A stretch of 64,000 bases of DNA from Candidatus Methanoperedens nitratireducens. Its GTDB lineage: Archaea; Halobacteriota; Methanosarcinia; Methanosarcinales; Methanoperedenaceae. The translations under genes and the position numbers were made by a program. The notes below the pieces were generated by a model. It searched no databases. It was not told where the DNA came from and was given only the letters and a program-made list of their open reading frames with translations. The DNA lies in NCBI GenBank assembly GCA_020724545.1, contig DYGR01000014.1, forward strand, positions 1-64,000, read 5' to 3'. Below are positions 5,061 through 38,018 of this stretch, piece by piece (positions within the stretch are counted from its first letter, which is position 1; every line of letters starts with the position of its first letter).

Positions 5061-6725
5061 CTATTCATTTTGTTCGATGTCCTCTATCCTCTGCTCAATA
5101 ATTTCCCTCAGTTCATCTCTATTCTCTCCTTCTTTTTCTCTCTCCAGCAGCTCCTCGAGAATATCTATGTCATCCACATGTGCTATCATTTTTTCAAGCA
5201 CGGTAACTGGCTGCGCTAGATCAAGATTCAATGCTGCGTCTTTTAATTGCTTTATAACAAGCATCGTTTTTTCTTTGTGTTCTTTTTTCAGCTCTTTGTA
5301 CTCCTTTTCTGTAATTTCTCCTGCATTGAATTTATTTTCAAGAGCCAGGATCGATTCAAACGAAGCATTTTTCAAAGCGTGTAGCTCATCAAATGACATT
5401 TCGCTGATGTCTTTCCCTGGAATATTCTCTGCAATAACATTTGCCTGCGGGATGCCCTCTCCAGCTTCATCCGGTTCATCTGTAGATACCTGAACTGGCA
5501 ATGAAGGTTTGATAAAACGTCTTCTGGATTTCTTGCCGATTTTGTTTCTAAGGAACGGATACGAGACAGCTCCGATTACCACTACGGCCAGTACAGGGAT
5601 AAGATAGTTAAAATCCCCTCCAATGCCTGTCTTTGAGGGAACATAACCTGTTATCTGTGTATCTACTATCTGGTTTCTTGGTATATTCTGTAAGGTCAGG
5701 ACCTCGAACTCTTTCCCTTCACCTGGAACTATTTGCTTTTTAGCATATGTGCTTTCAATCCCGAAACCGTTATTTCTTTCAGAAAGCAGGGTGAAATATG
5801 AGGTGTTGTATATCATCTCTTTGGTAAATACTGCCTCAGATGAATCCGGGCTCAGGATGTATGAGATCTCAGCACCGTATGTCTCACCAGGCAAAAGCGG
5901 CTTCATAGGATCTATCCATGCTGCATTCTTCTCCCTTACAAGACAGCATTCCATGACATCTGTCTGGAACCTTGTTATGCCCTGTGGTGTTGAAATTCCA
6001 AGCCATGTACGGTCTTTACTAAAGAAAACCTTATCCCCTGTATTCATGAATTCAACGTACTCATCAACCTTTATTCCAGTTGGTGCACGGGAAAGGACTA
6101 TGTGGTCTATCTTTACGCTGATTATATCCCTTTCTTCGGTAGTGTCATAAACTGTAAAATCAGCGCTCTCTGAGGCATTTACAAGCTCTGTGTACGGGAC
6201 ATCAGCATATGTGGCCTCGATAATGTAGGTCCTGCCTGCGTTAACATTATTAAACAAGTATTTCCCGCTCCCATTAGTATAAGTGTTCATTACCTCAATA
6301 CCTCTTATATCGAGAAGGCGAAGCGGTATTCCTTCAAGTGTATTATTTGCCTTCAGGACAGATCCCTCTATTTTTTCTGAGAGATTGAAATCCACAGCAG
6401 CCCTATCTCTCAAGATCACATGTTCCCCGAAAGTAGAGCCGTTATAAGTTACGTTGACTCTATACTCGCCGTCTTTCAGGTCACTGAACACATAACTCCC
6501 GTCTTTATCTGTTGCTGTGTCGGCTAATGGCACAAAGTCATAGATTATCCCGGTCATGCTCTCTTCACTCTGCTCAGTACCGTTTATCCTGCTCAGCGTT
6601 ACTGTCTGTCCTGCCAGCTTTTCTCCTCCAGAAGTAACGTTTCCGCTGATCTGTGCTGCCCAGGCAGGGCCGCCCAGTACAGTCAATACAGCCAGTATAA
6701 CAAATAACAGCAATAATTTATTCAT
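5061..6725 (-). CDS. Large exported membrane protein of the ccm block: carboxypeptidase-regulatory-like domains, one TM, coiled cytoplasmic tail
   Basis: The 554-residue protein has a signal peptide (residues 1-23) and two carboxypeptidase-regulatory-like or Ig-like modules (about 24-115 and 115-195; motifs GSYVFSDLKDGEYRV and GKYLFNNVNAGRTY). A large extracytoplasmic domain follows, then one membrane helix (about 375-393), a basic stop-transfer stretch, and a charged helical tail with a SHOCT-like short coil (NAGEITEKEYKELKKEH, near residue 465). Its ATG overlaps the ccmH stop (TAATG), so translation is coupled. Bacterial systems have CcmI/CcmG near this position. This protein shares no motif with them but may hold apocytochrome, which is inference. 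Confidence 0.75.
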   Translation of the reverse strand: MNKLLLLFVILAVLTVLGGPAWAAQISGNVTSGGEKLAGQTVTLSRINGTEQSEESMTGIIYDFVPLADTATDKDGSYVFSDLKDGEYRVNVTYNGSTFGEHVILRDRAAVDFNLSEKIEGSVLKANNTLEGIPLRLLDIRGIEVMNTYTNGSGKYLFNNVNAGRTYIIEATYADVPYTELVNASESADFTVYDTTEERDIISVKIDHIVLSRAPTGIKVDEYVEFMNTGDKVFFSKDRTWLGISTPQGITRFQTDVMECCLVREKNAAWIDPMKPLLPGETYGAEISYILSPDSSEAVFTKEMIYNTSYFTLLSERNNGFGIESTYAKKQIVPGEGKEFEVLTLQNIPRNQIVDTQITGYVPSKTGIGGDFNYLIPVLAVVVIGAVSYPFLRNKIGKKSRRRFIKPSLPVQVSTDEPDEAGEGIPQANVIAENIPGKDISEMSFDELHALKNASFESILALENKFNAGEITEKEYKELKKEHKEKTMLVIKQLKDAALNLDLAQPVTVLEKMIAHVDDIDILEELLEREKEGENRDELREIIEQRIEDIEQNE

Positions 6726-7147
6726 TATTTTTCACGCTCCTGCAAGAATTTCTGGTACTCATATTCAAAGATCTCATTCTCATCCATTTTTTTCCTGCTT
6801 ATCTTATAAACAACAACCCCGCCCACAATGATTCCGGCAGGCAGGGCAAGCCAGACTATCCAGTCAAATCCTTCCTTGGGCGGTGTGGCCAGGATCTCTC
6901 TCCCGTATTCTGCAGCGAGCCTATCGTATATCTGTTTCTGCGATAGTCCCTGATCAAGCATCGCCCTGACTTTACCTTTCAGTTCAAGAGCGCTCTCACA
7001 TGAGCAATCGGCGGCGATCATAGTACACCCTCCCACATCAGGACAGTTCAGGTTTGATGTAATCTCCTCTTCAGTTACGGCTATTACCGGCACTGCCAGT
7101 ACAGTCATGAAGAACAGTATTGCAATTATTTTATATATCATGTACAC
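6725..7147 (-). CDS. ccmH: CcmH-like cytochrome c maturation protein with variant cysteine motif
   Basis: A 140-residue protein with a signal peptide (to about residue 23), the helical CcmH/CycL core (GLSQKQIYDRLAAEYGREIL, about 67-86) and a C-terminal membrane helix (about 97-115). The family normally has an LRCxxCQ redox pair; here the sequence is LNCPDVGGC (C35, C41) followed by DCSC (C48, C50), a changed spacing. CcmH works with CcmF to reduce and present the apocytochrome. Its start lies 17 bp inside the 3' end of ccmF and its stop overlaps the next ATG, so the order ccmF-ccmH-membrane protein is translationally coupled. Confidence 0.85.
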   Translation of the reverse strand: MYMIYKIIAILFFMTVLAVPVIAVTEEEITSNLNCPDVGGCTMIAADCSCESALELKGKVRAMLDQGLSQKQIYDRLAAEYGREILATPPKEGFDWIVWLALPAGIIVGGVVVYKISRKKMDENEIFEYEYQKFLQEREK

Positions 7148-27027: not shown

Positions 27028-28414
27028 TAATAAACTGAGAAAATACGACCTGCTCGAGAGTAATGCAGTAAAATCTATTTTCAAAAGCCGCAGAACCCAG
27101 TTTCTCTTCCAGCTGCCAGGAGCTCTGTTTTTAGTTATAGTCGTATTAGCAGGTTTTTATGGAATCCAGAACAGCAATATGAACTTTGCGAGCATTTCAA
27201 TCTGGGTTATCTGGTGGTCGCTTCTTATAATAAGTCTGGCACTGTTCGGAAGGTTCTGGTGCCTGATGTGCCCCTTTGGAGCAGCCGGGGACTGGATACA
27301 GCGCCGTTCATTTTACAAAAGGATTAACGATACATTCAGTTTAAACAGAAAATTGCCTGCTAAATTCAGAAATCTCTCTTTAGCTGCGGTATTCTTTCTT
27401 GTTATCACGTGGGCGGATTTCCAGTTCAACCTTGTAAACAGCCCGCTGAACACAGCGTATTTCATCGTCGCTTTGCTCGGCGTAATAGTAATCATATCAA
27501 TAATCTTCGAGCGCCGTTCCTTTTGCAGGTACGTATGTCCCATAACAGGGCTGGCAGGCTTATACTCAATGTTTGCTCCCTTTGAGTTGCGGTCAAAGGA
27601 CAGGGAGATATGCAAAACATGCAGAGAAAAGTACTGTATATCAGGGAATGAAAAAGGATATCCCTGCCCGGTATTTGAGTACCCGGGTACAATGGAGAAA
27701 AATACTCACTGCATTCTCTGCACCGAATGTGTCAAAACCTGCCACAGGAGTAACATCTCTTTTAACCTCCGTTCCTTCGCAGGGGATTTTCTGACTATAT
27801 CAAAAACAAGGACCGATGAGGCTGTATTCGTCCTGATACTGCTTGGGGTAACGGTATTCCAGACGCTGATCATGATAAGACCGTGGACAGGTTTAACGAC
27901 AGATTTAATGATCTATACCGGCGCAGGTTACGACTCTGTTCGATTTATCTTATTCATTGCTGTGGCGGCATTCCCTGTTCTGATCTATTCTGCGGCTATC
28001 GGCGTCTCAAAATTACTCAACCGGAAAGTAACGTTTAAAGATCTTTTCATGGGTTATGCATATTCCGTTATTCCCCTGGGGCTGATGATGCACCTTTCCC
28101 ATAATCTTCGCCATTTACTGGAAGAAGGCACGGGGGTAATCCCTGTCATCTCTGACCCGTTCGGGTTTGGATGGAATCTATTCGGGTCTTCCGGATATGC
28201 TCCTGCCCCGCTTCTTAACAATAATAACATTCTATTAATACAGTGGCTGCTGATGTTTGCAGGGTTGGGATTCTCGATATCAGTCGGAAGAGGCATTTCA
28301 AGGCGAATGTTCCGTGAAAATGAATCGGCATATATACCTGTACTGATGTTTATTTTTATCTTTTTCGTGTTTAATCTCTGGATGTTAGGGCAGCCGATAA
28401 TGCATAAGCATTAA
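27017..28414 (+). CDS. Membrane polyferredoxin (NosR/NapH-type 4Fe-4S protein)
   Basis: A 465-residue membrane protein with about nine helices and cytoplasmic cysteine clusters: FWCLMCPFGAAGDW (near 79), FCRYVCPITGLAGLY (near 170), CKTCREKYC (near 200) and CILCTECVKTCHRS (near 236). The CxxxCP motifs after helices are typical of NapH, NosR and CcoG-like proteins that move electrons between quinol and periplasmic acceptors. No nos or nap genes adjoin. The upstream propeller and downstream decayed genes give no further clue. Confidence 0.82.
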   Translation: MKSDNKLRKYDLLESNAVKSIFKSRRTQFLFQLPGALFLVIVVLAGFYGIQNSNMNFASISIWVIWWSLLIISLALFGRFWCLMCPFGAAGDWIQRRSFYKRINDTFSLNRKLPAKFRNLSLAAVFFLVITWADFQFNLVNSPLNTAYFIVALLGVIVIISIIFERRSFCRYVCPITGLAGLYSMFAPFELRSKDREICKTCREKYCISGNEKGYPCPVFEYPGTMEKNTHCILCTECVKTCHRSNISFNLRSFAGDFLTISKTRTDEAVFVLILLGVTVFQTLIMIRPWTGLTTDLMIYTGAGYDSVRFILFIAVAAFPVLIYSAAIGVSKLLNRKVTFKDLFMGYAYSVIPLGLMMHLSHNLRHLLEEGTGVIPVISDPFGFGWNLFGSSGYAPAPLLNNNNILLIQWLLMFAGLGFSISVGRGISRRMFRENESAYIPVLMFIFIFFVFNLWMLGQPIMHKH

Positions 28415-28419
28415 ATCCG

Positions 28420-28560
28420 CCTGAACTCAGTTTTATCTCCGCGATCTTCAGCCCTTTGACAATAAAAGAAAAACCGTTTTTCCGGCTGAAATACTGAATA
28501 TGCGGGTTTTTATCCAGACTTTTGACAAGCGCAAGGAGCCTCTCGTATGAGCGGCGTGCC
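28420..28560 (-). pseudogene. Fragment of the PD-(D/E)XK-like gene
   Basis: Read on the minus strand this segment encodes SYERLLALVKSLDKNPHIQY and then FIVKGLKIAEIKL, clearly homologous to residues about 30-75 of the protein at 28671-29588 (RRLLEQIKGWDKNLHIQC, FIVKGLRVAEINL). It has a stop upstream in frame and is cut by the end of the polyferredoxin gene. It is a decayed second copy. Confidence 0.75.
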
Positions 28561-28670
28561 TGCGGGGGATATTAAGGAGATGGGCGGCGCGGGCGAAAGG
28601 CGTTGGGGAGGGCGGTGGGAGATGGAAAGAAGGGGGTCTTTAAACCACATGGCAACCGAAGTAATGCCTC
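28561..28670. other. G-rich non-coding stretch
   Basis: The plus strand is unusually G-rich between 28560 and 28640, unlike the surrounding AT-rich DNA. Read on minus it would give a Pro-rich linker similar in style to the one ahead of the PD-(D/E)XK-like protein. No intact gene is present. Confidence 0.3.
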
Positions 28671-29588
28671 TTATAGTTTATCAGTTTTTACTACATAAAC
28701 CTCTTCAGTCTTTTTCCAATCATTATTCAGATGCAAAGCCTCAACCTCACAGCCAAGACTTTTTATGTTATTCACAATATCCATATCCAGACTGCTATTC
28801 TTGAAATCAGCATCCGGTGCAGCAATAATAAATTTCAGATTCTCGATATTCGCATCCCATCCTAGTTGAGCTATCCTTGGCTTTATTAGTTCCCTGTATC
28901 TCACGAACCAGTCCACATACAGGCTCTTGGATAAGCTTTTACCATTGCTGCTGTCAAAAAGAACGGCGTTCAGATCTTCATTATCGTTCTTGACTTCAAC
29001 TATGACCAGTGCTTTACTCTGACGCTCCTTTGCCAATATATCGATATACATTCGTGCGTATCTGTTTTTATTTTCTCTTTTGATTTTGCCTGCCGACGCT
29101 TCGTAATATAAGAACTGAAGATCAGTGCCCGATAAACCGCCATTTTGCATTTTTTCGATCAGCAGGGAGTGAAGCCATTTCTCACGGTAGCCGATTATGT
29201 TGTTCTTGCGAAGCTCGATCAAGTTCTTTGCTTCCGAGATAAAATGAGCTCGCAGGTCTGCTTCTGAGACAGGCGGGTTTATCTGTCCCTCATATAAAAA
29301 ATCCATTGTGTCCTGATGAACGCTCGTATAGCCCTGGTTCAGGATATTCTTTCTCAGCGTCAGCACAAAACCCCTGGGGTCGAGATTTATTTCAGCTACC
29401 CTGAGCCCTTTCACAATGAAGGTAAAATGCTCTTTTTTACTGAAACACTGTATATGCAGATTCTTATCCCATCCTTTAATCTGCTCAAGGAGCCTCCTGC
29501 ACTGGTCGCGCGCCGCAGTAGAGCGAATCCTGCTCAAATTCTCTGATTCTGTCATCCAGAGATCAGCAGTGCCGTCAAATGGACCCAA
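28671..29588 (-). CDS. Putative PD-(D/E)XK nuclease-like protein
   Basis: A protein of about 305 residues from TTG 29588, or 294 from ATG 29555. Near residue 190, YIDILAKE, then a short loop and LVIVEVKND, give the D-(x)n-ExK order of PD-(D/E)XK nucleases, followed by a helix and an FIIAAP strand. The N-terminal half (about 28-80) is the part repeated in the fragment at 28.4 kb. The same frame continues upstream through a Pro-rich linker and a CxxCxxWH module to a TAA at 29811, then on to ATG 29909, so the gene may be a truncated form of a longer one. Nuclease activity is inferred. Confidence 0.6.
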   Translation of the reverse strand: MGPFDGTADLWMTESENLSRIRSTAARDQCRRLLEQIKGWDKNLHIQCFSKKEHFTFIVKGLRVAEINLDPRGFVLTLRKNILNQGYTSVHQDTMDFLYEGQINPPVSEADLRAHFISEAKNLIELRKNNIIGYREKWLHSLLIEKMQNGGLSGTDLQFLYYEASAGKIKRENKNRYARMYIDILAKERQSKALVIVEVKNDNEDLNAVLFDSSNGKSLSKSLYVDWFVRYRELIKPRIAQLGWDANIENLKFIIAAPDADFKNSSLDMDIVNNIKSLGCEVEALHLNNDWKKTEEVYVVKTDKL

Positions 29589-29810
29589 TATCGGGCTGGC
29601 TGAGTTATTTAGTAGAGCGGATGAGGGTGCACCGGGCGGCTGGGCAGGCGCTGGGTTTAAGTCAGGATCTCGCTGGATGTATGAGCGGTGCTGGAGATGG
29701 TCGGTTCGGGCGGCGGTGTGCCAGGTGGAGCAGAGGGAACAGAAGTAGTATTTTGAGGCTGGGGAGTTCGTGATGTTTTCATCAAGATGTGATATATGCT
29801 GATTGCCAGT

Positions 29811-29909
29811 TTATGAAGGGTCGTTGGTGCAGCGGTGCCAGGCGGCGCAAAGGGAGCAGAAGTAGTAGTCGCCGGGTTGGTTAAGGGATTTGATTTTAGT
29901 GTCAGTCAT
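29811..29909 (-). CDS. 32-residue CxxCxxWH zinc-knuckle-like peptide, probably 5' part of an interrupted gene
   Basis: ATG 29909 opens a 32-codon frame containing DYYFCSLCAAWHRCTNDPS, ending at TAA 29811-29813. The same frame then runs without another stop to 28671 and repeats the module as KYYFCSLCSTWH about 30 codons on. A single nonsense mutation therefore separates it from the PD-(D/E)XK-like gene. Cys-x2-Cys-x2-Trp-His suggests a metal knuckle. Whether the short peptide is made is unknown. Confidence 0.5.
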   Translation of the reverse strand: MTDTKIKSLNQPGDYYFCSLCAAWHRCTNDPS

Positions 29910-29945
29910 TACCGTCTCTCTTTCCTCATCAATTATTCTTATCAA

Positions 29946-29993
29946 TTTCGGGTTTATTTCGGGTTTATTTCGGGTTTTTCGGGTTTATTTCGA
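29946..29993. repeat. Tandem 10-11 bp repeat, unit TTTCGGGTTTA, about 4.4 copies
   Basis: Units occupy 29946-29956, 29957-29967, 29968-29977, 29978-29987 and a partial 29988-29993. The repeat covers the 3' end and stop codon of the AlbA_2 gene, so copy-number change would alter its C-terminus. Confidence 0.8.
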
Positions 29994-31339
29994 GACAAAA
30001 CATATTCTATATTTCTCCCTGTTTTACCTATCCTTTCAAATATATTCTTCGCGCAAATATCAGAAAGATCGATAAGCGCCATTCTATCTGTGATATCAAA
30101 CATCCCTCGATACTCCTTATTTGTAATCCTTCCTTTTTCCTTAACATACATCACTGCCCTGACCTGTCTGTCATTAAGACCTATCTTTCTGAGTTCCTCC
30201 TGCGAAAAAGAATCTTTCCTCAAATATACAGAAAATCCCCCAAATTCCTCTTTAAACTCAGGCTCAGGAATCCCTGCTTCATTTGTGGACTTTAGTATCC
30301 TTCCTATACCTGAACCGTACTCTTCAATCAATCCTGCTAGATAGAATACATGGACTATAAGGGGATTTCTAGCTACAGATGGATGAGGACTTTTCAATTG
30401 TTTCAAGGTTATTCCTTCAGGAAGTCCACCTATATTGAAGAACCATATTTTATCATCGAACACTTTGATCTGTGTTTGAACATTGTATCTGAAATAATCC
30501 CTGTGAATAACAGAATTAAGAAGAGATTCTCTGATAGCTTCGAGTGGATAATCCCAGATGTTTTCTCTCGTTAATTTTTCACCAGTAATCTCATATCTTA
30601 CATTTATAAAATTTTTTATGGATTCCAGTGCTTCTTCAACCTGTATGAATAGATTGCCTTCGATGTACCTGTCCCCAATGATAGTGATTTCGTCTTTGAA
30701 CTTTCCAACCCTGACCACTGCGTTTATGAAACGATTTTGCGGTTGTTTCCCAAAAAGCATTATCGCTCCATTAGTTAGTTTCCCATCAATAATAAGTTTC
30801 AATTTTTCAAGAGTTGTTTTAATGTCATCCTCTTCATCTGTTTTCCTCAATCTCCCACTTGTCACAGCCATCCTTACAAATTTCCTGACAGTTTCAGCAT
30901 CTATCTCTTCCAGGCTATAATTTCCAGTGAGTCCGTCCCAATTATTGCCTTTTGTAAAAAATGTCCTTAATTCCTCTCCTTGCATTTCCCGTGTTGTATT
31001 TCCAACCCGTTTGTAATATCGACCTTCATACGAGATCGGCGGGGTGCTTTTCTTTACTTCCACTTTCAGGACATGTTTACCATTGACCTCAATACAATCT
31101 ATCTGTGGATGTATCCCAAGTTTGTTAACTATCCTGTTTGTCATTTCTTCGATAGAACGGTTGCTGCAATCAAAACCCGGTACCTCTTTTCGGTCAGATA
31201 TTCCAATATATAATAGTCCTCCGTTCGTATTTGCAAAGGCGGATAGACTTTTAAACACGGAATCATTGACCAGTTCTTTGAATTCTATGGTTGAACCTTC
31301 TACAATTTTCAGGAGTTCATTCAAATTCATAATGCTCAT
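29954..31339 (-). CDS. AlbA_2-domain protein (RecG-like/COG2865 family)
   Basis: A 461-residue protein. The N-terminal AlbA_2 (Schlafen-like, formerly AAA_4) domain has ESTIEFKELVND (near 14), FANTNGGLLYIGISD (near 36-50) and a YYKRVGN turn (about 108). A central domain contains HRDYF, and a C-terminal winged helix follows (residues about 385-440). Proteins of this type are annotated as transcriptional regulators or RecG-like ATP-binding proteins, and many reside in defence islands. The last residues are encoded by a tandem repeat. A decayed CxxCxxWH module lies just upstream. Confidence 0.82.
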   Translation of the reverse strand: MSIMNLNELLKIVEGSTIEFKELVNDSVFKSLSAFANTNGGLLYIGISDRKEVPGFDCSNRSIEEMTNRIVNKLGIHPQIDCIEVNGKHVLKVEVKKSTPPISYEGRYYKRVGNTTREMQGEELRTFFTKGNNWDGLTGNYSLEEIDAETVRKFVRMAVTSGRLRKTDEEDDIKTTLEKLKLIIDGKLTNGAIMLFGKQPQNRFINAVVRVGKFKDEITIIGDRYIEGNLFIQVEEALESIKNFINVRYEITGEKLTRENIWDYPLEAIRESLLNSVIHRDYFRYNVQTQIKVFDDKIWFFNIGGLPEGITLKQLKSPHPSVARNPLIVHVFYLAGLIEEYGSGIGRILKSTNEAGIPEPEFKEEFGGFSVYLRKDSFSQEELRKIGLNDRQVRAVMYVKEKGRITNKEYRGMFDITDRMALIDLSDICAKNIFERIGKTGRNIEYVLSRNKPEKPEINPK

Positions 31340-31351
31340 CTGTTTTCGTTG

Positions 31352-31459
31352 TTATTGCCATGCCAGTTGATGAAGGATCGTTTGTGCAGCGGTGCCAGAC
31401 TGGGGCGGAAGTGATAGTTTCCAAGTTGGTTGAGGAGTTTTATTTTGAGTATTCGACAT
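31352..31459 (-). pseudogene. Decayed copy of the CxxCxxWH module
   Basis: The DNA between about 31365 and 31440 aligns on the minus strand with the module at 29811-29909 (shared CAACC, GGCACCGCTGCAC, AACGA and CCTTCAT blocks), but the cysteines are lost: the homologous frame reads NYHFRPSLAPLHKR. A start-to-stop frame of 35 codons exists in a different phase. It lies immediately ahead of the AlbA_2 gene, as the intact module lies ahead of the nuclease-like gene. Confidence 0.55.
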
Positions 31460-31520
31460 TATGATTCCTTTCTATTATCTTCTTGCATATCGTTTCTACA
31501 ATCAATTTAATATAGGTAAA

Positions 31521-32267
31521 TTATCGGTATATGGGAACTAGGTCATTTTCAAAGAGAGCTTCAGAAACTAGATTGTATATGTAGTTGGAATTCTTAATGC
31601 TTCCACAAAACATTGGCTCCCTTGCTATAGTTATTCCACGCAGTCGAGGGAGAAACCATTCCTGTAATATATTCAATTGGCCTTTAATTTCAGCCTCATT
31701 TAATGGTGTAAAAATATCTTCAAATTCTGACTCTTCAAGATTAGTAAAATAATCAAGATCGATATCTAATAAAATATTTTTTTCTTCACTATTTTTTAGA
31801 ATTTCGAGGAAAATATTTAAATCATTGGTAAAATGAATTGTATGTTCTTTTCCCTCTTTATCAAAAAAACTTTTCTGTGGCTCATCAGTTGATTTACAGA
31901 GTAAATATATATCACCTATTAGATTCCAATAGGCTGCCGCATGAATATGAGTATCATTTTGTGCATTTAAATACTGGCAACAAAAACAGTCAATATCTTC
32001 ACCAGAACTCTTTTCTAAAATTTCGAGATTATTCTTATCATACCCCGATAAATCTTGATGCCAATCTATTGAAATTAAGGATAAACCATAGTTATTATAC
32101 TTTTTAGCAAATTTATACCAAGCATAAAATGCAAACCTATGTGAATCAAAAACGTACACAGGAATTTCGGGTTTTTCTTGGATGCCAAAATTTGCTCTGT
32201 TTCTTGGTTTTCCACGACATTCATGAAATCCAGGTGGTTCGATAATCGGGTATTTATTTGGTGTCAT
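31521..32267 (-). CDS. UPF0489-like protein (arginase/deacetylase-like fold)
   Basis: A 248-residue soluble protein with VFDSHRFAFYAWYKF (near 39), LISIDWHQDLSG (near 66) and ILLDIDLDYFTN (near 170). The D-x-H-x-D style clusters and spacing resemble the UPF0489 (C5orf22) family, which is predicted to share a metal-binding arginase/histone-deacetylase-like fold. Function is unknown. The DNA is markedly richer in A and T than the core genes of the window, suggesting acquisition by transfer. It is first in a row of four rare genes on this strand. Confidence 0.55.
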   Translation of the reverse strand: MTPNKYPIIEPPGFHECRGKPRNRANFGIQEKPEIPVYVFDSHRFAFYAWYKFAKKYNNYGLSLISIDWHQDLSGYDKNNLEILEKSSGEDIDCFCCQYLNAQNDTHIHAAAYWNLIGDIYLLCKSTDEPQKSFFDKEGKEHTIHFTNDLNIFLEILKNSEEKNILLDIDLDYFTNLEESEFEDIFTPLNEAEIKGQLNILQEWFLPRLRGITIAREPMFCGSIKNSNYIYNLVSEALFENDLVPIYR

Positions 32268-32467
32268 AAATGATTTTCTAAACTTGAATTTTCGCTAACC
32301 AGTTATTTTTTTTGTTTATTATTAATTTTTATTTAAATTAAATTGAAAATATATCAATTCCATCTGATGATACTATTGCAATTGCATTGAGCTTCTCAGA
32401 AATATCGAACCAATTCACATCGTTTTTGCCTTGTTTTTTATATAAACTGATTAATTTTCTATATGTT
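32268..32467. other. AT-rich intergenic stretch
   Basis: About 200 bp of very AT-rich DNA. A short out-of-frame coding-like piece around 32340-32460 may be an eroded 3' end of the neighbouring gene, but I cannot assign it. Confidence 0.25.
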
Positions 32468-33637
32468 TTAAATACATTTTTTTTCAATATTTTGATTTAA
32501 ATGTTTTATTTCTGTTTCTGAAACATTCATCTTTTTTGAAAAATTCTCAGAAATATAGATTGCTTTTTCCCAATATTCTATCGCTTCAATATATTTTCCC
32601 AAATGGTATTTTGTTTCAGCAATGCACTTGCATAAATGTTCGTTCTCTGATTCATAATAAACAATATTTTTATAAATATTTAACTTCTCATTCTCTTTCT
32701 TTGCGATAAATTCTTGCGTTCTTCCATCATCAATCTTCAAGATTGCTTTGGTCTTATCATCGTCAAAGCTGAGTGAAAAATTATTGCGGTCGGTATCGAT
32801 AATTAAAGTTTTACCGTTATCAAATTTTTCAATTTTTAGTATCTTTATCCGATCAATTCCAAATATACTTCTAATAATTTCTAAAAGTTTGTCACTATCC
32901 TTTCCTGGAATATCGTTCAAACTGAACAAATACTCATCAGTAATCAGATATGCCTGTAGATAAAGAGATTCTGCTTCAGCATACTGTTTTTGAATATATT
33001 TTGAGTAAGCTGTAGTTTTTAGTCGTGTTCGTTTACTACTCGCACTCTCCTTAATGCTACCCTCTATTAGATTCCCATTTAAATCAATGCTGTATGAGTC
33101 TTCTTGACTTTTATCAGTAGATAAACATATAGTAGAATTATCTAAAAAATTAATTACTCTTACCGATGATGGTAATAAATTGTCCTTTATCCAAATTAGT
33201 TTATATTCATAAATATTAAAACAATAAATTTTATTATCTGGATCAAATGTAGTTACTATTAGCATAGAATACTTCTCAGAAAATTCTAATCCGAGAATAT
33301 TCGAATTGAATTTATATTGATATACTTCTTTTCCTTCTGCATCAAATACTGAGTACTCTTTTGAACTAAATATTATAACTCTTGCATCATCAGTTACAAA
33401 ATATTTTAAAGGCTTATCAATTTCTTTTTTCCACAATATTTTTGAATTATTTTCGATTAGATATACTCTGCCCGGAATTACAGTTACTTTGCCAATTTCA
33501 TCATCCATTTCATAAGGACTGGAAAATACGACTACGTATTTTTGATTTTGAGATTGATGACAATAACCTGAAAAGCATCCATCCACGTCTTCAATTTGTA
33601 TCCATTTGTCATCTATTTCTATTATATAATCGTTCAT
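32468..33637 (-). CDS. Propeller-like plus TPR-like hypothetical protein
   Basis: A 389-residue soluble protein. The first about 190 residues are short beta strands with WD/PQQ-like character (VYLIENNSKILWKKEID, YSVFDAEGKEVYQYKF, NIYEYKLIWIKDNLL). The remainder is helical with TPR-like units (YIQKQYAEAESLYLQAY near 215; YHLGKYIEAIEYWEKAIYI near 350) separated by a beta insertion. This layout suits a scaffold or sensor. The family is not recognised. AT-rich DNA and neighbours suggest an accessory origin. Confidence 0.55.
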   Translation of the reverse strand: MNDYIIEIDDKWIQIEDVDGCFSGYCHQSQNQKYVVVFSSPYEMDDEIGKVTVIPGRVYLIENNSKILWKKEIDKPLKYFVTDDARVIIFSSKEYSVFDAEGKEVYQYKFNSNILGLEFSEKYSMLIVTTFDPDNKIYCFNIYEYKLIWIKDNLLPSSVRVINFLDNSTICLSTDKSQEDSYSIDLNGNLIEGSIKESASSKRTRLKTTAYSKYIQKQYAEAESLYLQAYLITDEYLFSLNDIPGKDSDKLLEIIRSIFGIDRIKILKIEKFDNGKTLIIDTDRNNFSLSFDDDKTKAILKIDDGRTQEFIAKKENEKLNIYKNIVYYESENEHLCKCIAETKYHLGKYIEAIEYWEKAIYISENFSKKMNVSETEIKHLNQNIEKKCI

Positions 33638-33697
33638 ATCTGTTAATTCTCTGAACTCTTATTTAGATCTTCATACAATTTATGCTCCTTCGATGCT

Positions 33698-34468
33698 TCA
33701 AGAAACTTTACTGATTGGATTAATCTTTACTTCATGTTCTTGATTCATTATGACTGAAAATCTTTTCTCAAAAAAAAGTTTAAGTTCTTTAATATTTCCG
33801 TTCTCTTTCTTATTTAGAAAGTAACAACAATACAAAATTTCTGTTTCATCTTGTGGATTATATAATTTTTTTGTTTCTGGAGCTATCAAAATTACTATCC
33901 AATCTTCATCATTAAGACACTTTAATTCTATTAATTTTTTTTCGATATTTTTCCTATAGTGTTCTATCGAACTTCGATAATCATTTATTTCTCTACTAAT
34001 ACGAGGTCGAGCAACAATTATTTTAAATTTTCCTTTATAACTTCTTAATTTTTCTATCTCTTCGGATATACTTTTTAACTGCTCTTTTATTGTGCTTCCT
34101 GTTTCTTCATGCTCTAATCCCAATATGAATTCTTTATCAGAATCGTGCCAAGACACGTCATAGTATCTGGAAAAGGGTTTTTGATATTCATTACCAGACT
34201 CGTCAATAAAATCAACAAACATTTTGATACCCTTTTCATATGTATAAGAAGCTCCAATTTCATAACCTTTTTCTTTCCCAAAAATAATAAAAAAAGCATG
34301 AATGAAGGGTGACCACGAGTTCCCAGACTCGCCTTTTTTGCTAGGATATCTATGATTTTCCCACCAATTCTTTGTCCCTTTAAAGTGTTTGAAATTATCA
34401 AAATGCTTTGTAATGAAATCAAATAATGTTTCCACAATCTGCTCTTTTGATAGTATTATATCATCCAT
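33698..34468 (-). CDS. Hypothetical protein with EHEE motif, possible nuclease-like domain
   Basis: A 256-residue soluble protein. A central YYDVSWHDSDKEFILGLEHE (near 104-123), followed by a helix and a FKIIVARPR strand, recalls the strand-acid-strand-E core of restriction-endonuclease-like folds. The usual lysine is replaced (EHEE), so a nuclease assignment is speculative. It is flanked by the propeller/TPR gene (60 bp) and the zincin gene (41 bp) on the same strand and shares their low GC. Confidence 0.5.
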   Translation of the reverse strand: MDDIILSKEQIVETLFDFITKHFDNFKHFKGTKNWWENHRYPSKKGESGNSWSPFIHAFFIIFGKEKGYEIGASYTYEKGIKMFVDFIDESGNEYQKPFSRYYDVSWHDSDKEFILGLEHEETGSTIKEQLKSISEEIEKLRSYKGKFKIIVARPRISREINDYRSSIEHYRKNIEKKLIELKCLNDEDWIVILIAPETKKLYNPQDETEILYCCYFLNKKENGNIKELKLFFEKRFSVIMNQEHEVKINPISKVS

Positions 34469-34509
34469 AATTTTTCCTGATGTTTAATAGTTCTATATTT
34501 TATTATACA

Positions 34510-34920
34510 TTAATTAATTTTTTGTTGCTGGATGGACATATTTTTTTTAAATCTATCATGATACTCTTTTATTACACCCTCTATGATTTGTTTCATAGCA
34601 TTGTTTAAGATTTTAACTTCTTCATCTACGGGTTCTGGCATTGCCGCCAATTGTGTTTTTCTATAAGAATTGGCCCACATTTGAAAATCCCTCCCACATC
34701 GAGGATTTTGCCCATTATATTTGCGATGTCCCAATTTTATATGTAATATCTCATGGTTTAGAACGTGCCAAAATGCACTCTTTTTGCTTACATGATGTTT
34801 TTCAGCAAGATCGTAAACAAACCATATTGGGATATATACAAAGTTCTCGTCATAATGGGGCTTATCTTCATCGGTAAGTTCACGAGAAGGCTTCGCTCCT
34901 TCAATTATTTTCAATTGCAT
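34510..34920 (-). CDS. Zincin-like metallopeptidase domain protein
   Basis: A 136-residue protein with a canonical HExxHxxxGH zinc motif (NHEILHIKLGHRKYNG, near residue 53) preceded by a helix. There is no signal peptide, so it acts inside the cell. Small intracellular zincins of this kind accompany regulators or toxins in mobile islands. The substrate is not predictable. It precedes the three other rare genes in the same direction and may form a transcript with them; gaps are 41, 60 and 200 bp. Confidence 0.65.
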   Translation of the reverse strand: MQLKIIEGAKPSRELTDEDKPHYDENFVYIPIWFVYDLAEKHHVSKKSAFWHVLNHEILHIKLGHRKYNGQNPRCGRDFQMWANSYRKTQLAAMPEPVDEEVKILNNAMKQIIEGVIKEYHDRFKKNMSIQQQKIN

Positions 34921-34952
34921 GTTTTACAATCCTTACCAATAAACTTCTTGCA

Positions 34953-35501
34953 TCAGATCTTTTTCTCCCTCACGCTCGCCGTCCACATATCCGCCCAGTG
35001 CAGCAGCAACAGCAGCGGCTCTTCCTTATGCGCCACCGAGCGCCCCTCAGGAACATACATCCCATCATGGTAAGCGATCGCCTGTGCCTCAGCATCTGAA
35101 AGTGGGATATACTGAGAAACAAGATACAGGCTGCGCAGCGCAAGCCCCATAGCAACAATGTCAGAATTAATGGTATATGTGCCAGTTGGCACGCCGTCTT
35201 TGACCTCAGGCAAATAATAGGGCACACCTGGCATACCAACCTTTCCGACATCGTGGAATAATCCAACAATAACGCAGCTCTCTTCGCTTATTTCTGGCGC
35301 AAGGGCTTCACGCAGGCGCAGCAGAGTCTCAGCTACTCCTATGCTGTGTTCTAGCAGTCCGCCTTCTCTGTTCAGGTGGTATTTTGTGCTTGCAGGGCTT
35401 GTGAGCCATGTGGTCTCGGTGTGGAGCATATTGATGAATTTGTTTACTGCTTCTTTGCGTTCATAGATTTTGCCAAAAAGGGCATCGTAGCGTTCTTTCA
35501 T
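34953..35501 (-). CDS. HD-domain phosphohydrolase
   Basis: A 182-residue protein from ATG 35501, which has an AGGAAGA site upstream; a GTG at 35528 is alternative. HD motifs are in order: REGGLLEHSIGVAETLL (His near 58), LFHDVGKVGMP (HD near 86) and AIAYHDGMYVPEG (near 145). The family hydrolyses phosphoesters, often nucleotides. A truncated copy of its C-terminal half lies at 37.8 kb. Position among rare genes suggests a stress or defence function. Confidence 0.8.
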   Translation of the reverse strand: MKERYDALFGKIYERKEAVNKFINMLHTETTWLTSPASTKYHLNREGGLLEHSIGVAETLLRLREALAPEISEESCVIVGLFHDVGKVGMPGVPYYLPEVKDGVPTGTYTINSDIVAMGLALRSLYLVSQYIPLSDAEAQAIAYHDGMYVPEGRSVAHKEEPLLLLLHWADMWTASVREKKI

Positions 35502-35566
35502 TCGAATCTTCCTGCTTCTTAAACCCACATTTTACGCGTTGACATAACCTTCTCCATAAATGTTGT

Positions 35567-36163
35567 TCATTCCTTCATGATATCCTTATACCATTTGGAA
35601 AAATTCTTCTTTACAAACTCATTCATTTCATCTAAATTTTTCAGATTTTTATTTCCTTTTTTCCACTCATCGAAAACTTGTATGAAATGGGTATGCGGAT
35701 CATCCACAGCCCAGTCCTGGAATTCTGTCGTGGCTTCTTTTTCAAATTTATAAATCCCTTTCAAGATCCCCATGCAGTGAAGCTTTGCTTCCTCATCCAT
35801 TCCAAGCTTCTGGCACTTCCTGAGTTCATCAATATAAGGCTCCAGCGCTTCTTCAAACATCTCGGATGCCAGTTCATAAGGATCAACATACCCGTATCTT
35901 GTACTTCCTGAATTATCCCAGACATCCTCAACTTCAAGGCTATCCAGGTCACAAAAAACACTCTCTGCGACATCATCAATATCCACTTTTATCAGGTATT
36001 CAGGTGCAAGCTCCTCTATTCTTTTCGAGATTTTCACATCTTCATCAGCAAGTCTTTTCAGAATATCGTATGCATGCTCAGCAATAATATCCTCAAGAAT
36101 CTCCTTTTTCTTCGTCATTATAGAGCCTTGCGATTTGTTATTCTTTTTAGCTTTTTTATTCAT
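35567..36163 (-). CDS. Hypothetical acidic helical protein
   Basis: A 198-residue, highly charged and mostly helical protein starting with a Lys/Asn-rich segment. An internal Met (residue 16) could be the start. It has YGYVDPYELASEMFEEALEP in the middle and a WYKDIMKE end. No catalytic motif is seen and the family is not recognised. It lies 65 bp upstream of the HD gene on the same strand. Confidence 0.55.
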   Translation of the reverse strand: MNKKAKKNNKSQGSIMTKKKEILEDIIAEHAYDILKRLADEDVKISKRIEELAPEYLIKVDIDDVAESVFCDLDSLEVEDVWDNSGSTRYGYVDPYELASEMFEEALEPYIDELRKCQKLGMDEEAKLHCMGILKGIYKFEKEATTEFQDWAVDDPHTHFIQVFDEWKKGNKNLKNLDEMNEFVKKNFSKWYKDIMKE

Positions 36164-36341
36164 ATATCCTCGTTTAAAACCTAAGCTGAAATCCTTTGGC
36201 TTTGTATAAAAATTCTTTTCTAATAATGCCCCAGGTTCACGTTAATTCCCGCAAGAAATCATAGAATTCATCGAAAAAAGATAAATTTAATTAGGATTTA
36301 ATGACAGATACATAAGAGTTGATGCAGGTGAGCCCATCACA

Positions 36342-37322
36342 ATGATCGAACGTCTCTCCATAAAAAATTTCAAATCCATAAAATCCCTCTCCCTGAGCTG
36401 CAAAAGAATTAACCTCTTCATAGGCGAGCCCAACTCCGGCAAATCCAACATACTCGAAGCCCTCGGTTTGCTGAGCTGGTGCAGGTATGCCGGTGATCTC
36501 AAAGACTATGTCCGATTTCGCAGCATAACGAACCTTTTTTACGATGACCTCCTCGATCAGCCGGTCATGATAGAACTTGACAAATTAAGACTGAATATAA
36601 CATTTGAAAATGATAATTTCAATTTCGAATACGGAGACGGGAAAAGAACCATCTGCACACTTGATTATTCCGGGAACATCAAAGGGAATACCATCCAGAA
36701 TATAATCCCGCTCCAAGAAGCTGAGTTTGTAAAATGTTATCGATTCTTAAAGCATGACCGGTTCCCAAACACAAGTTCATCCTTCCTCATGCCCCCTCAT
36801 GGTTCCAACCTTTTTGCTGTTGTAATTGGAAATAAGAAGCTTCGGGAGACCATGACCAGATTTTTCAAGAATTTCGGTTTCAACCTCGTGTTCAGACCGC
36901 AGGAAAGAACTTTTGAGATACAGAAGCAAATAGGGGATATGGTTTTTAGCTATCCCTACATACTGACCTCGGATACGCTCCAGACAATAATATTCCATGT
37001 GATCGCTATGGAATCAAATAAAAATTCTACTTTAGTCTTTGAAGAGCCGGAAGCCCATGCATTCCCTTACTACACAAAATATCTCGGCGAAAAAATCGCA
37101 CTGGATGAATCAAACCAGTATTTCATAGCGACCCACAATCCCTATCTCCTGCTTTCAATCATTGAAAAAGCAAAAAAAGATTCAATCAATGTTTTCATCA
37201 CGTATTTCAGGGATTATCAGACAAAAGTAAAAAGCCTGAGCGGTGAACAGATGTCAGAATTAATGGAATATGACCCGTTTTTTAATTTGAGCTCATTTAT
37301 CGAACAGGCAGATGAAGAATGA
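36342..37322 (+). CDS. AAA/ABC-type ATPase of the OLD/RecF-like class
   Basis: A 326-residue ATPase: N-terminal strand LSIKNFKSIKSL, Walker A GEPNSGKSN (near 28-36), Walker B TLVFEEPEAHAFP (near 228) and H-loop FIATHNPYLLL (near 263). These features define AAA_15/21 ATPases related to OLD, RecF and the AriA subunit of PARIS. No fused TOPRIM domain follows; instead the next gene overlaps by 4 bp and has TOPRIM-like motifs. Such split ATPase/TOPRIM pairs are known phage-defence effectors. Confidence 0.82.
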   Translation: MIERLSIKNFKSIKSLSLSCKRINLFIGEPNSGKSNILEALGLLSWCRYAGDLKDYVRFRSITNLFYDDLLDQPVMIELDKLRLNITFENDNFNFEYGDGKRTICTLDYSGNIKGNTIQNIIPLQEAEFVKCYRFLKHDRFPNTSSSFLMPPHGSNLFAVVIGNKKLRETMTRFFKNFGFNLVFRPQERTFEIQKQIGDMVFSYPYILTSDTLQTIIFHVIAMESNKNSTLVFEEPEAHAFPYYTKYLGEKIALDESNQYFIATHNPYLLLSIIEKAKKDSINVFITYFRDYQTKVKSLSGEQMSELMEYDPFFNLSSFIEQADEE

Positions 37323-37783
37323 TAGTGGTTGAGTGCGACCCGGATGAATTCCTGGTAAAAAGCATTGGATTTCCAGGAAAATTGATAAAACATGAAAGCG
37401 GTAAAGGTAAAGTCTTGGGTGTCGTAAATAAAAAACAGCATGCGATTGGCATTATTGATGAAGACCCGGACAGCAGCCAACCGGGTGAAATGAAGAAGTA
37501 CATCGAAAAAGAAGCTTTTGAGACTATCAAATTGCTTGTAAGAAAAGACGACGATGGAAAAAGGATAATACAAATTTCTCCATACCTTGAACAATGGCTT
37601 TTACATCGAGCTAAACAGAATGGAATTTCTGTAAAGGATTTTGGACTACCTGATGACCCAAAAGAAATGCATAATATAACTCACATTGAGAGAGGTAAAA
37701 ACTTCCAGAACTTTCTGAATGAACTTATTAAAACTGACGATGAAGTTAAAACAATTAAGAAATGGATAAAGGAGTTTGTCTAA
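37319..37783 (+). CDS. Small TOPRIM-like partner of the AAA ATPase
   Basis: A 154-residue protein starting MIVVECDPDEFLVKSIG with a second acidic strand end AIGIIDEDPDSSQPG (near residue 45). The E...DxD arrangement matches the TOPRIM-like core of the DUF4276/DUF4435/RloB group, although the usual VEG is VEC here. The helical remainder includes YLEQWLLHRAK. ATGA overlap with the ATPase gene means translational coupling. It is shorter than known AriB or OLD nuclease parts, so this may be a minimal form. Confidence 0.6.
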   Translation: MIVVECDPDEFLVKSIGFPGKLIKHESGKGKVLGVVNKKQHAIGIIDEDPDSSQPGEMKKYIEKEAFETIKLLVRKDDDGKRIIQISPYLEQWLLHRAKQNGISVKDFGLPDDPKEMHNITHIERGKNFQNFLNELIKTDDEVKTIKKWIKEFV

Positions 37784-37799
37784 ATTTTTCATGAACTCT

Positions 37800-38018
37800 A
37801 TTCTTTCCTCTCTCTCACACCGCCGTCCGCATATCAGCCCAGTGCAGCAGTAAAAGCGTCTCTTCCTTATGCGCCACCGCATACCCTCTCAGGCACATAC
37901 ATACCATCATGGTAGGCAATCACCTGCGCCTCAGCATCGGAAAGAGGGATATACTGTGAAAGAAGATATAGGCGCACAGCGCAAGCCCAATAGCCACTAT
38001 ATCAGGATTAATTGTGTA
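37800..38018 (-). pseudogene. Truncated, frame-broken copy of the HD gene
   Basis: This segment aligns at DNA level with 34972-35180, the 3' half of the HD-domain gene. Shared blocks include GCCCAGTGCAGCAG, TCTTCCTTATGCGCCACCG, ATCATGGTA and GGGATATACTG. Small indels break the frame and the HD catalytic part is missing. It runs into the 3' end of the archaeosortase A gene, whose stop codon lies in the junction. Confidence 0.8.

What the first reader, a model, noticed from the sequence alone, without database searches (positions are those of the whole stretch)
28671..29909. Nuclease-like gene split by one TAA after a duplicated CxxCxxWH module
From ATG 29909 to 28671 a single frame is interrupted only by TAA 29811. 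On both sides of the stop lies the same YYFCSLCxxWH unit. Without the stop the product would be about 411 residues: two zinc-knuckle-like units, a Pro-rich linker and a PD-(D/E)XK-like domain.
Basis: seen in the sequence. Interest (0 to 1): 0.58.

Follow-up and report, generated by a model that had tools for sequence, protein, structure and literature searches.

The report
Archaeal zinc-module nuclease gene, recently broken
A methane-oxidising archaeon carries a DNA-cutting-enzyme gene of an unnamed family that a single stop codon has recently cut off near its start; relatives have the whole gene, and its neighbours hint at a defence role.

Summary
Confirmed: 29909..28671 (-) is one frame interrupted only by TAA at 29813..29811 (codon 33), with a YYFCSLCxxWH unit on each side. 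Six unbroken homologues run through both units, so this is a full-length ~405-aa protein gene inactivated by a nonsense codon, not a gene that starts downstream. The protein has two CCHH zinc-type units, a Pro-rich linker, a middle domain and a C-terminal PD-(D/E)XK domain closest to NucS_C and the nuclease half of DUF5655 proteins; no Pfam model covers it above cut-off. dN/dS of about 0.2 and no excess of amino-acid changes on the window branch make the stop recent (or an assembly error). All three known copies of this subclade are broken and the locus holds two further relics, so decay is normal here. Beyond the finding: the double-knuckle module recurs in three architectures in the order; an HD-domain gene co-occurs with it (10 of 14 HD genomes, same contig in 7); a knuckle-less homologue sits in a type III-D CRISPR-Cas operon; the first-knuckle segment looks exchanged by recombination. 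Function (anti-invader nuclease) is inferred. The stop is ordinary; the family is undescribed in the libraries searched.

The parts
28671..29909 (-). interrupted gene (412 codons read through, then TAA)
29811..29813 (-). in-frame TAA, codon 33; TCC (Ser) at this column in G026, G029, G003 and the G017 relic; TCA in the window's own upstream relic
29787..29867 (-). knuckle unit 1 (C18, C21, H25, H38/H41)
29697..29750 (-). knuckle unit 2 (C57, C60, H64, H71)
29586..29672 (-). Pro-rich linker, least constrained part (NG86 dN/dS 0.48, 30 codons)
29202..29585 (-). middle alpha/beta domain; only a structural resemblance to DUF1801/YdhG and frataxin-like folds, not supported by sequence profiles
28674..29201 (-). 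PD-(D/E)XK domain; D290 (29042-29040), E305 (28997-28995), K307 (28991-28989)
28920..28961 (-). lineage-specific insertion that replaces the Q..SY motif of the other eight aligned members
29586..29588 (-). first in-frame NTG (TTG) after the stop; would give a 305-aa product without knuckles
29910..29991 (-). 5' leader with (AAATAAACCCG)n, nearly identical to the leader of the G032 gene (other genus)
29954..31339 (-). Schlafen AlbA_2 + RecG-type C-terminal (HATPase_c_4) gene directly upstream; its tail also precedes the G003 and G017 copies
31332..31446 (-). relic of a knuckle-1 coding segment, overlapping the Schlafen gene start
28410..28562 (-). relic of the middle domain of another copy, nearer to the G003/G029 type (82% nt) than to the window gene (57% aa)
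34953..35528 (-). HD-domain gene whose relatives co-occur with double-knuckle genes

Best explanation
This is a recently inactivated (nonsense) copy of a real, full-length nuclease gene in a Methanoperedens-type archaeon. The intact protein most likely works as an accessory or defence nuclease. Two zinc-binding CCHH units at the N-terminus recognise nucleic acid or a partner, a flexible Pro-rich linker and middle domain follow, and a NucS-like PD-(D/E)XK domain cuts DNA. In the window copy translation stops after 32 codons, between the knuckles, so no nuclease is made unless by weak downstream initiation. The family turns over fast: relics flank this gene and most copies in the genus are broken. 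SHOWN by computation: intact homologues with both units, conserved metal-type and catalytic residues, purifying selection, relics, HD-gene linkage. INFERRED: zinc binding, nuclease activity, defence role, loss of function.
For: Unbroken homologues. Selection: window vs G026 dN/dS 0.18-0.20 over 318 codons, low in knuckles and nuclease, highest in linker; window branch 25 synonymous / 17 nonsynonymous against 24 / 33 on the G026 branch, so no relaxation. Metal sites: in the 245-aa class the second unit swaps Cys and His at ligand positions while keeping four ligands. Nuclease: profile-profile match to NucS_C prob 93.8%, E 1.8e-7, and to the DUF5655-linked nuclease prob 96.3%, E 1.6e-9, with middle and N-terminal segments as negative controls. 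Decay is the rule: in the window's genus, 2 genomes hold an unbroken copy (G029, G003) against 5 with only broken ones (window, G026, G017, G030, G007), plus G020 cut by a contig end. Defence hints: type III-D operon in G308; Cas5/Cas7 genes and a CRISPR array beside the G003 copy; weak PADLOC PDC-S18 matches.
Against: No reads, expression or activity data, so an assembly or sequencing error is not excluded. The TAA differs at two positions from the TCC of its relatives, which needs two changes or an intermediate. Selection on the sequence after the stop is as strong as elsewhere, which also fits a still-translated downstream product. The predicted models are weak (mean pLDDT 58.9 and 56.6; knuckles below 50), so the knuckle fold is unseen. 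CRISPR proximity is seen in only 2 genomes, one of them with a knuckle-less homologue.
Confidence: 0.72

Rival explanations
1. The TAA is a sequencing or assembly error, or a minor allele fixed in the consensus; the gene is intact in the living population.
For: Every invariant residue of the alignment is present in the window copy, there is no relaxation on its branch, and there is no other lesion in 412 codons. The genome is an 88-contig assembly with 5.44% listed contamination.
Against: Two adjacent bases differ from the TCC of the relatives, less likely as a single miscall; the sister copy G026 is broken independently, and G030 keeps only a remnant.
Confidence: 0.14
2. Downstream initiation (TTG 29588) makes a shorter 305-aa nuclease without knuckles: a functional split or shortened form.
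For: The nuclease part is under purifying selection; two distant homologues lack knuckles.
Against: The knuckle-less homologues have another N-terminal region instead of starting there. The second knuckle, upstream of the TTG, is fully conserved in the window copy. No Shine-Dalgarno-like sequence is visible just before TTG 29588 (sequence, by eye).
Confidence: 0.08
3. The stop is read through (recoded), giving some full-length protein.
For: Single stop in an otherwise open, constrained frame.
Against: TAA is not a known recoding codon in this group (recalled; not tested). No homologue has a stop at this column: Ser codons in G026, G029, G003 and the G017 relic, Thr in G032.
Confidence: 0.03
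4. The knuckle unit before the stop is kept as a separate 32-residue peptide.
For: A stand-alone double-knuckle protein with a C-terminal hydrophobic stretch exists in G118.
Against: G118 has both units in one protein; a single unit cut here would lack its fourth ligand (H38/H41), which lies after the stop.
Confidence: 0.02

Closest known systems
NucS/EndoMS C-terminal nuclease domain (PF01939)
   Same: PD-(D/E)XK core with D, E-x-K and the Q motif aligned; profile-profile prob 93.8%; VIA Z 7.5 to 5gkj_B, rmsd 3.3 over 108 residues
   Different: Below Pfam's cut-off (best E 0.0066, 4 of 9 members); N-terminal part is two knuckles plus another domain; window copy lost the Q
DUF5655 proteins (NucS-like nuclease followed by DUF5655, ~305 aa)
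   Same: Closest nuclease half by profile: prob 96.3%, E 1.6e-9
   Different: No DUF5655 domain by sequence profile in the family; domain order differs
Shedu (SduA, PF14082)
   Same: PD-(D/E)XK fold with a separate N-terminal region; VIA Z 6.5 to 8ti9_B, rmsd 4.0 over 130 residues
   Different: No sequence-profile match (prob 1.1%)
RYYR-CCHC domain (PF23674)
   Same: Weak match of 2 of 10 knuckle sequences (best E 1.2e-5)
   Different: None over the cut-off in 184 genomes of the order, and its two sub-threshold matches there are other genes
Type III CRISPR ancillary nucleases (Card1, Can2, Cdn1)
   Same: PD-(D/E)XK fold (VIA Z 4.6-5.5); one homologue encoded in a type III-D operon
   Different: No CARF profile matched the family members scanned in PADLOC

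Membership tests
PD-(D/E)XK nuclease superfamily | D ... E-x-K active site on an alpha-beta-beta-beta-alpha-beta core | tested here: met
   D290, E305, K307 invariant in 9 of 9 aligned members; predicted order of elements fits
NucS/EndoMS | NucS match above the Pfam or NCBIfam cut-off | tested here: not met
   Best Pfam E 0.0066; NCBIfam NucS 16.4 bits against 216
NucS/EndoMS | homology of the nuclease domain by profile-profile comparison | tested here: met
   hhalign prob 93.8%, E 1.8e-7, against 13 NucS_C stretches
NucS/EndoMS | mismatch or branched-DNA cleavage, PCNA binding | not testable with these tools
   needs biochemistry
Shedu (SduA_C) | SduA_C profile match | tested here: not met
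   hhalign prob 1.1% against 7 SduA_C stretches; the fold-level hit is not specific
DUF5655 nuclease proteins | presence of a DUF5655 domain | tested here: not met
   middle domain vs 14 DUF5655 stretches prob 0.4%
DUF1801/YdhG fold (middle domain) | shared fold | tested here: inconclusive
   VIA Z 9.1, rmsd 3.1 over 102 residues to 2oc6_A, but sequence profiles do not match
RYYR-CCHC | PF23674 above cut-off | tested here: not met
Type III CRISPR ancillary effector | encoded in a type III operon | tested here: inconclusive
   yes for the knuckle-less G308 homologue; not shown for the window gene
Type III CRISPR ancillary effector | CARF or SAVED sensor domain in the protein | tested here: inconclusive
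   no CARF profile of PADLOC matched; no fold prediction of the G308 N-terminus was made
Zinc-binding CCHH unit | four metal ligands per unit conserved | tested here: met
   first unit C19, C22, H26, H39 (L004 numbering) in 10 of 10 aligned rows; second unit keeps four Cys/His positions, with swaps, in the nine rows that reach it

The most novel reading that the evidence does not exclude
The double-knuckle proteins and the HD-domain protein form an undescribed Methanosarcinales anti-invader system whose nuclease core has also been recruited into a type III-D CRISPR operon. Its first-knuckle segment is exchanged by recombination among live and dead copies, so a stop in that segment, as here, is a switchable 'off' allele rather than a dead end.
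Probability: 0.07. Interest if true: 0.75.

Novelty: new variant of a known kind. Interest (0 to 1): 0.42.

Why it matters
A single nonsense codon is ordinary. It leads, however, to a family that no Pfam, PHROGs or NCBIfam model covers above cut-off here, built from a shuffled double-zinc module and a NucS-like nuclease, linked to an HD gene and once to a type III CRISPR operon. If it is a defence system, it would add a tractable one in archaea of methane cycling, and the mosaic 5' ends would be a case of defence genes kept variable by recombination with their own relics.

Tried and rejected
Searches that found nothing: Pfam on the window product, PDB by sequence (chance-level hits only), PHROGs, viral contigs, plasmids and phages by tblastn, and the first genome-contig scan with the single protein. 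Foldseek gave no hit at E <= 0.001; the VIA rows are a second look at Foldseek's list, and families absent from it are not excluded.

Considered and rejected: Shedu membership, DUF5655/DUF1801 homology of the middle domain by sequence, RYYR-CCHC membership, homology of the 245-aa class C-terminus to NucS, Shedu or the window nuclease (no match), and a further shared gene between HD and nuclease in window and G032 (the SprT-like G032 gene does not match the window's 34510-34920 gene). DNA-level constraint as the cause of the low dS in knuckle 1 is less likely because G506/G507 do not show it. The window has no tRNA gene.

Literature: searches for RYYR-CCHC, DUF5655 (82), PDC-S18 (84) and Schlafen + AlbA + anti-phage + archaea (97) held no paper. 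Methanoperedens + pseudogene (83), type III CRISPR + ancillary + NucS (86), Methanoperedens + CRISPR + defense systems + Borg (87), a Methanosarcina/zinc finger/CRISPR search (99) and accessory proteins of type III systems (101) gave listings only, with abstract starts. Of PMC4158269 I saw passages; its Zn-finger arCOG was not compared.

Full report
1. OBSERVATION. On the minus strand, ATG 29909 opens a frame that ends at 28671 and is interrupted only by TAA 29813..29811, codon 33. YYFCSLCAAWH precedes the stop and YYFCSLCSTWH follows it. The next in-frame NTG is TTG 29588.

2. THE UNBROKEN GENE EXISTS. A search of 34 genomes of the family found matches in 9. A search of 185 genomes of the order with a profile of the knuckles found 18 with matches. 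Three more full-length unbroken genes came from it: G439, G506, G507. The aligned codon is TCC in G026, G029 and G003 and in the relic of G017; G032 has ACA there. In the window's own upstream relic it reads TCA, so a path through TCA is plausible.

3. WHEN DID IT BREAK? Window versus G026, the nearest copy (81% nt), has dN/dS 0.18 (NG86) or 0.20 (YN00) over 318 codons. The values are 0.25/0.15 for the knuckles, 0.48 for the linker (NG86 only), 0.12/0.18 for residues 111 on, and 0.20/0.37 for the last 93 codons. With G029 and G003 as outgroups the window branch has 25 synonymous and 17 nonsynonymous changes, the G026 branch 24 and 33, over 317 codons. A long-dead gene would show an excess of nonsynonymous change, and the window branch does not. 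The counts are small and polarised by parsimony. So the stop is recent, or an assembly error, or the product after the stop is still made; the data do not separate these fully.

4. DECAY IS COMMON. G026 carries a one-base frameshift late in the gene. G030 keeps only a C-terminal remnant, most like the window copy. Thus all three known copies of the subclade are broken. G017 keeps only the first-knuckle segment, G007 a fragment, G020 a fragment at a contig end, and G032 a relic beside its intact gene. The window has two relics of its own, 31446-31332 and 28562-28410. In the window's genus, 2 genomes hold an unbroken long copy and 5 hold only broken ones, with G020 undecided.

5. ANATOMY. In ten aligned knuckle regions the first unit keeps C, C, H, H in all ten. 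In the second unit C/C/H/H of the long class becomes C/(H or C)/H/C in the 245-aa class; exchange of Cys and His at ligand positions is typical of a metal site (inference). The C-terminal domain has invariant D290 and E305-V-K307 in 9 of 9 members. Eight of nine have the Q of Q..SY; the window copy has an 8-residue insertion instead. Profile comparison gives NucS_C prob 93.8%, E 1.8e-7 and the nuclease half of DUF5655 proteins prob 96.3%, E 1.6e-9. The Shedu profile does not match. The middle and N-terminal segments, run as controls, match neither NucS nor Shedu. Fold models are weak: pLDDT 58.9 (G029 sequence) and 56.6 (window), with the knuckles below 50. Z values near 8 can be chance, and the middle-domain match has no sequence support.

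6. THE MODULE IS SHUFFLED. The knuckle pair occurs (a) with the NucS-like core (the window family), (b) in ~245-aa proteins with another C-terminal domain (G035, G224, G234, G293, G366, G428, G007; frameshifted in G396), and (c) alone with a C-terminal hydrophobic stretch (G118). The core occurs without knuckles in G308 and G254. The phylum search covered 392 genomes, 11 with matches; those outside the order (G091, G321) are NucS-like or DUF5655 proteins matched in the nuclease domain only.

7. NEIGHBOURS. An HD-domain gene (window 35528-34953) has relatives in 17 of 184 genomes of the order at E <= 1e-10. Leaving out G009, G209 and G357 (weak matches, E about 1e-12 to 1e-14), 14 remain, and 10 of these carry the knuckle module; hypergeometric p 3.9e-9. 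This p ignores relatedness, and the two searches drew 184 and 185 genomes. In 7 of the 10 (window genome, G003, G032, G506, G507, G224, G396) both lie on one contig. In G507 a few bases separate the HD frame from the nuclease frame. In G224 and G396 they are divergent neighbours. In G003 they are about 13 kb apart, with Cas5/Cas7 genes and a CRISPR array between. Eight knuckle genomes have no HD match of this strength, so the link is not universal. In G308 the knuckle-less homologue lies between a CARF-PIN frame and Csx1/Csm6, followed by Cas1, in an operon with Cas6, Cas10, Csm3 and Cas5 of subtype III-D. The window gene follows a Schlafen AlbA_2 gene.

8. MOSAIC 5' ENDS. Window versus G032 is 92-100% identical from about 29970 to 29850, then drops to about 55%. 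Codons 9-50 of the window, G026, G029 and G003 have dS 0.22-0.54 in every pair against 0.65 to saturation in the core and nuclease parts. G506/G507 show no such dip, which argues for recent exchange in Methanoperedens rather than a constraint on the DNA. Segments are short, so single dS values are rough.

9. VERDICT. The likeliest state is a recent nonsense allele of an undescribed, fast-turning-over nuclease family with a probable defence role. The stop itself is ordinary; the family and its neighbourhood carry the interest.

Noticed in passing
L077 7124-8344 (G308:C6): Knuckle-less homologue of the nuclease inside a type III-D CRISPR-Cas operon, between CARF-PIN and Csx1/Csm6; the CARF-PIN gene itself appears as two frames (5570-6067, 6071-7099).
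   Followed up: partly
L027 9437-10500 (G003:C60): CRISPR array with 61-nt period whose last repeat abuts a fragment of the Schlafen gene tail just upstream of the intact nuclease gene.
   Followed up: partly
L079 7003-9065 (G118:C1): Stand-alone double-knuckle protein with a hydrophobic C-terminus, overlapping by 4 bases an unknown 523-aa gene.
   Followed up: no
L074 1793-2080 and 7955-8170 (G439:C75): Remnant frame of the 245-aa class C-terminal domain and a knuckle relic on either side of the intact nuclease gene.
   Followed up: no
window 30000-38000: Low-GC stretch (28-39% against about 43%) with Schlafen, UPF0489-like, TPR, HD and AAA_15 genes; the AAA gene (36342-37322) matches NsnB/AriA profiles of PADLOC. 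Looks like an acquired island.
   Followed up: partly
window 37885-37974: Fragment of a second HD gene copy (87% identity over 30 residues).
   Followed up: no
L046-L049, L064, L067, L068: C-terminal domain of the 245-aa class (PDxIYC ... IIEFET) matches none of the families compared; possibly another nuclease-like domain.
   Followed up: partly
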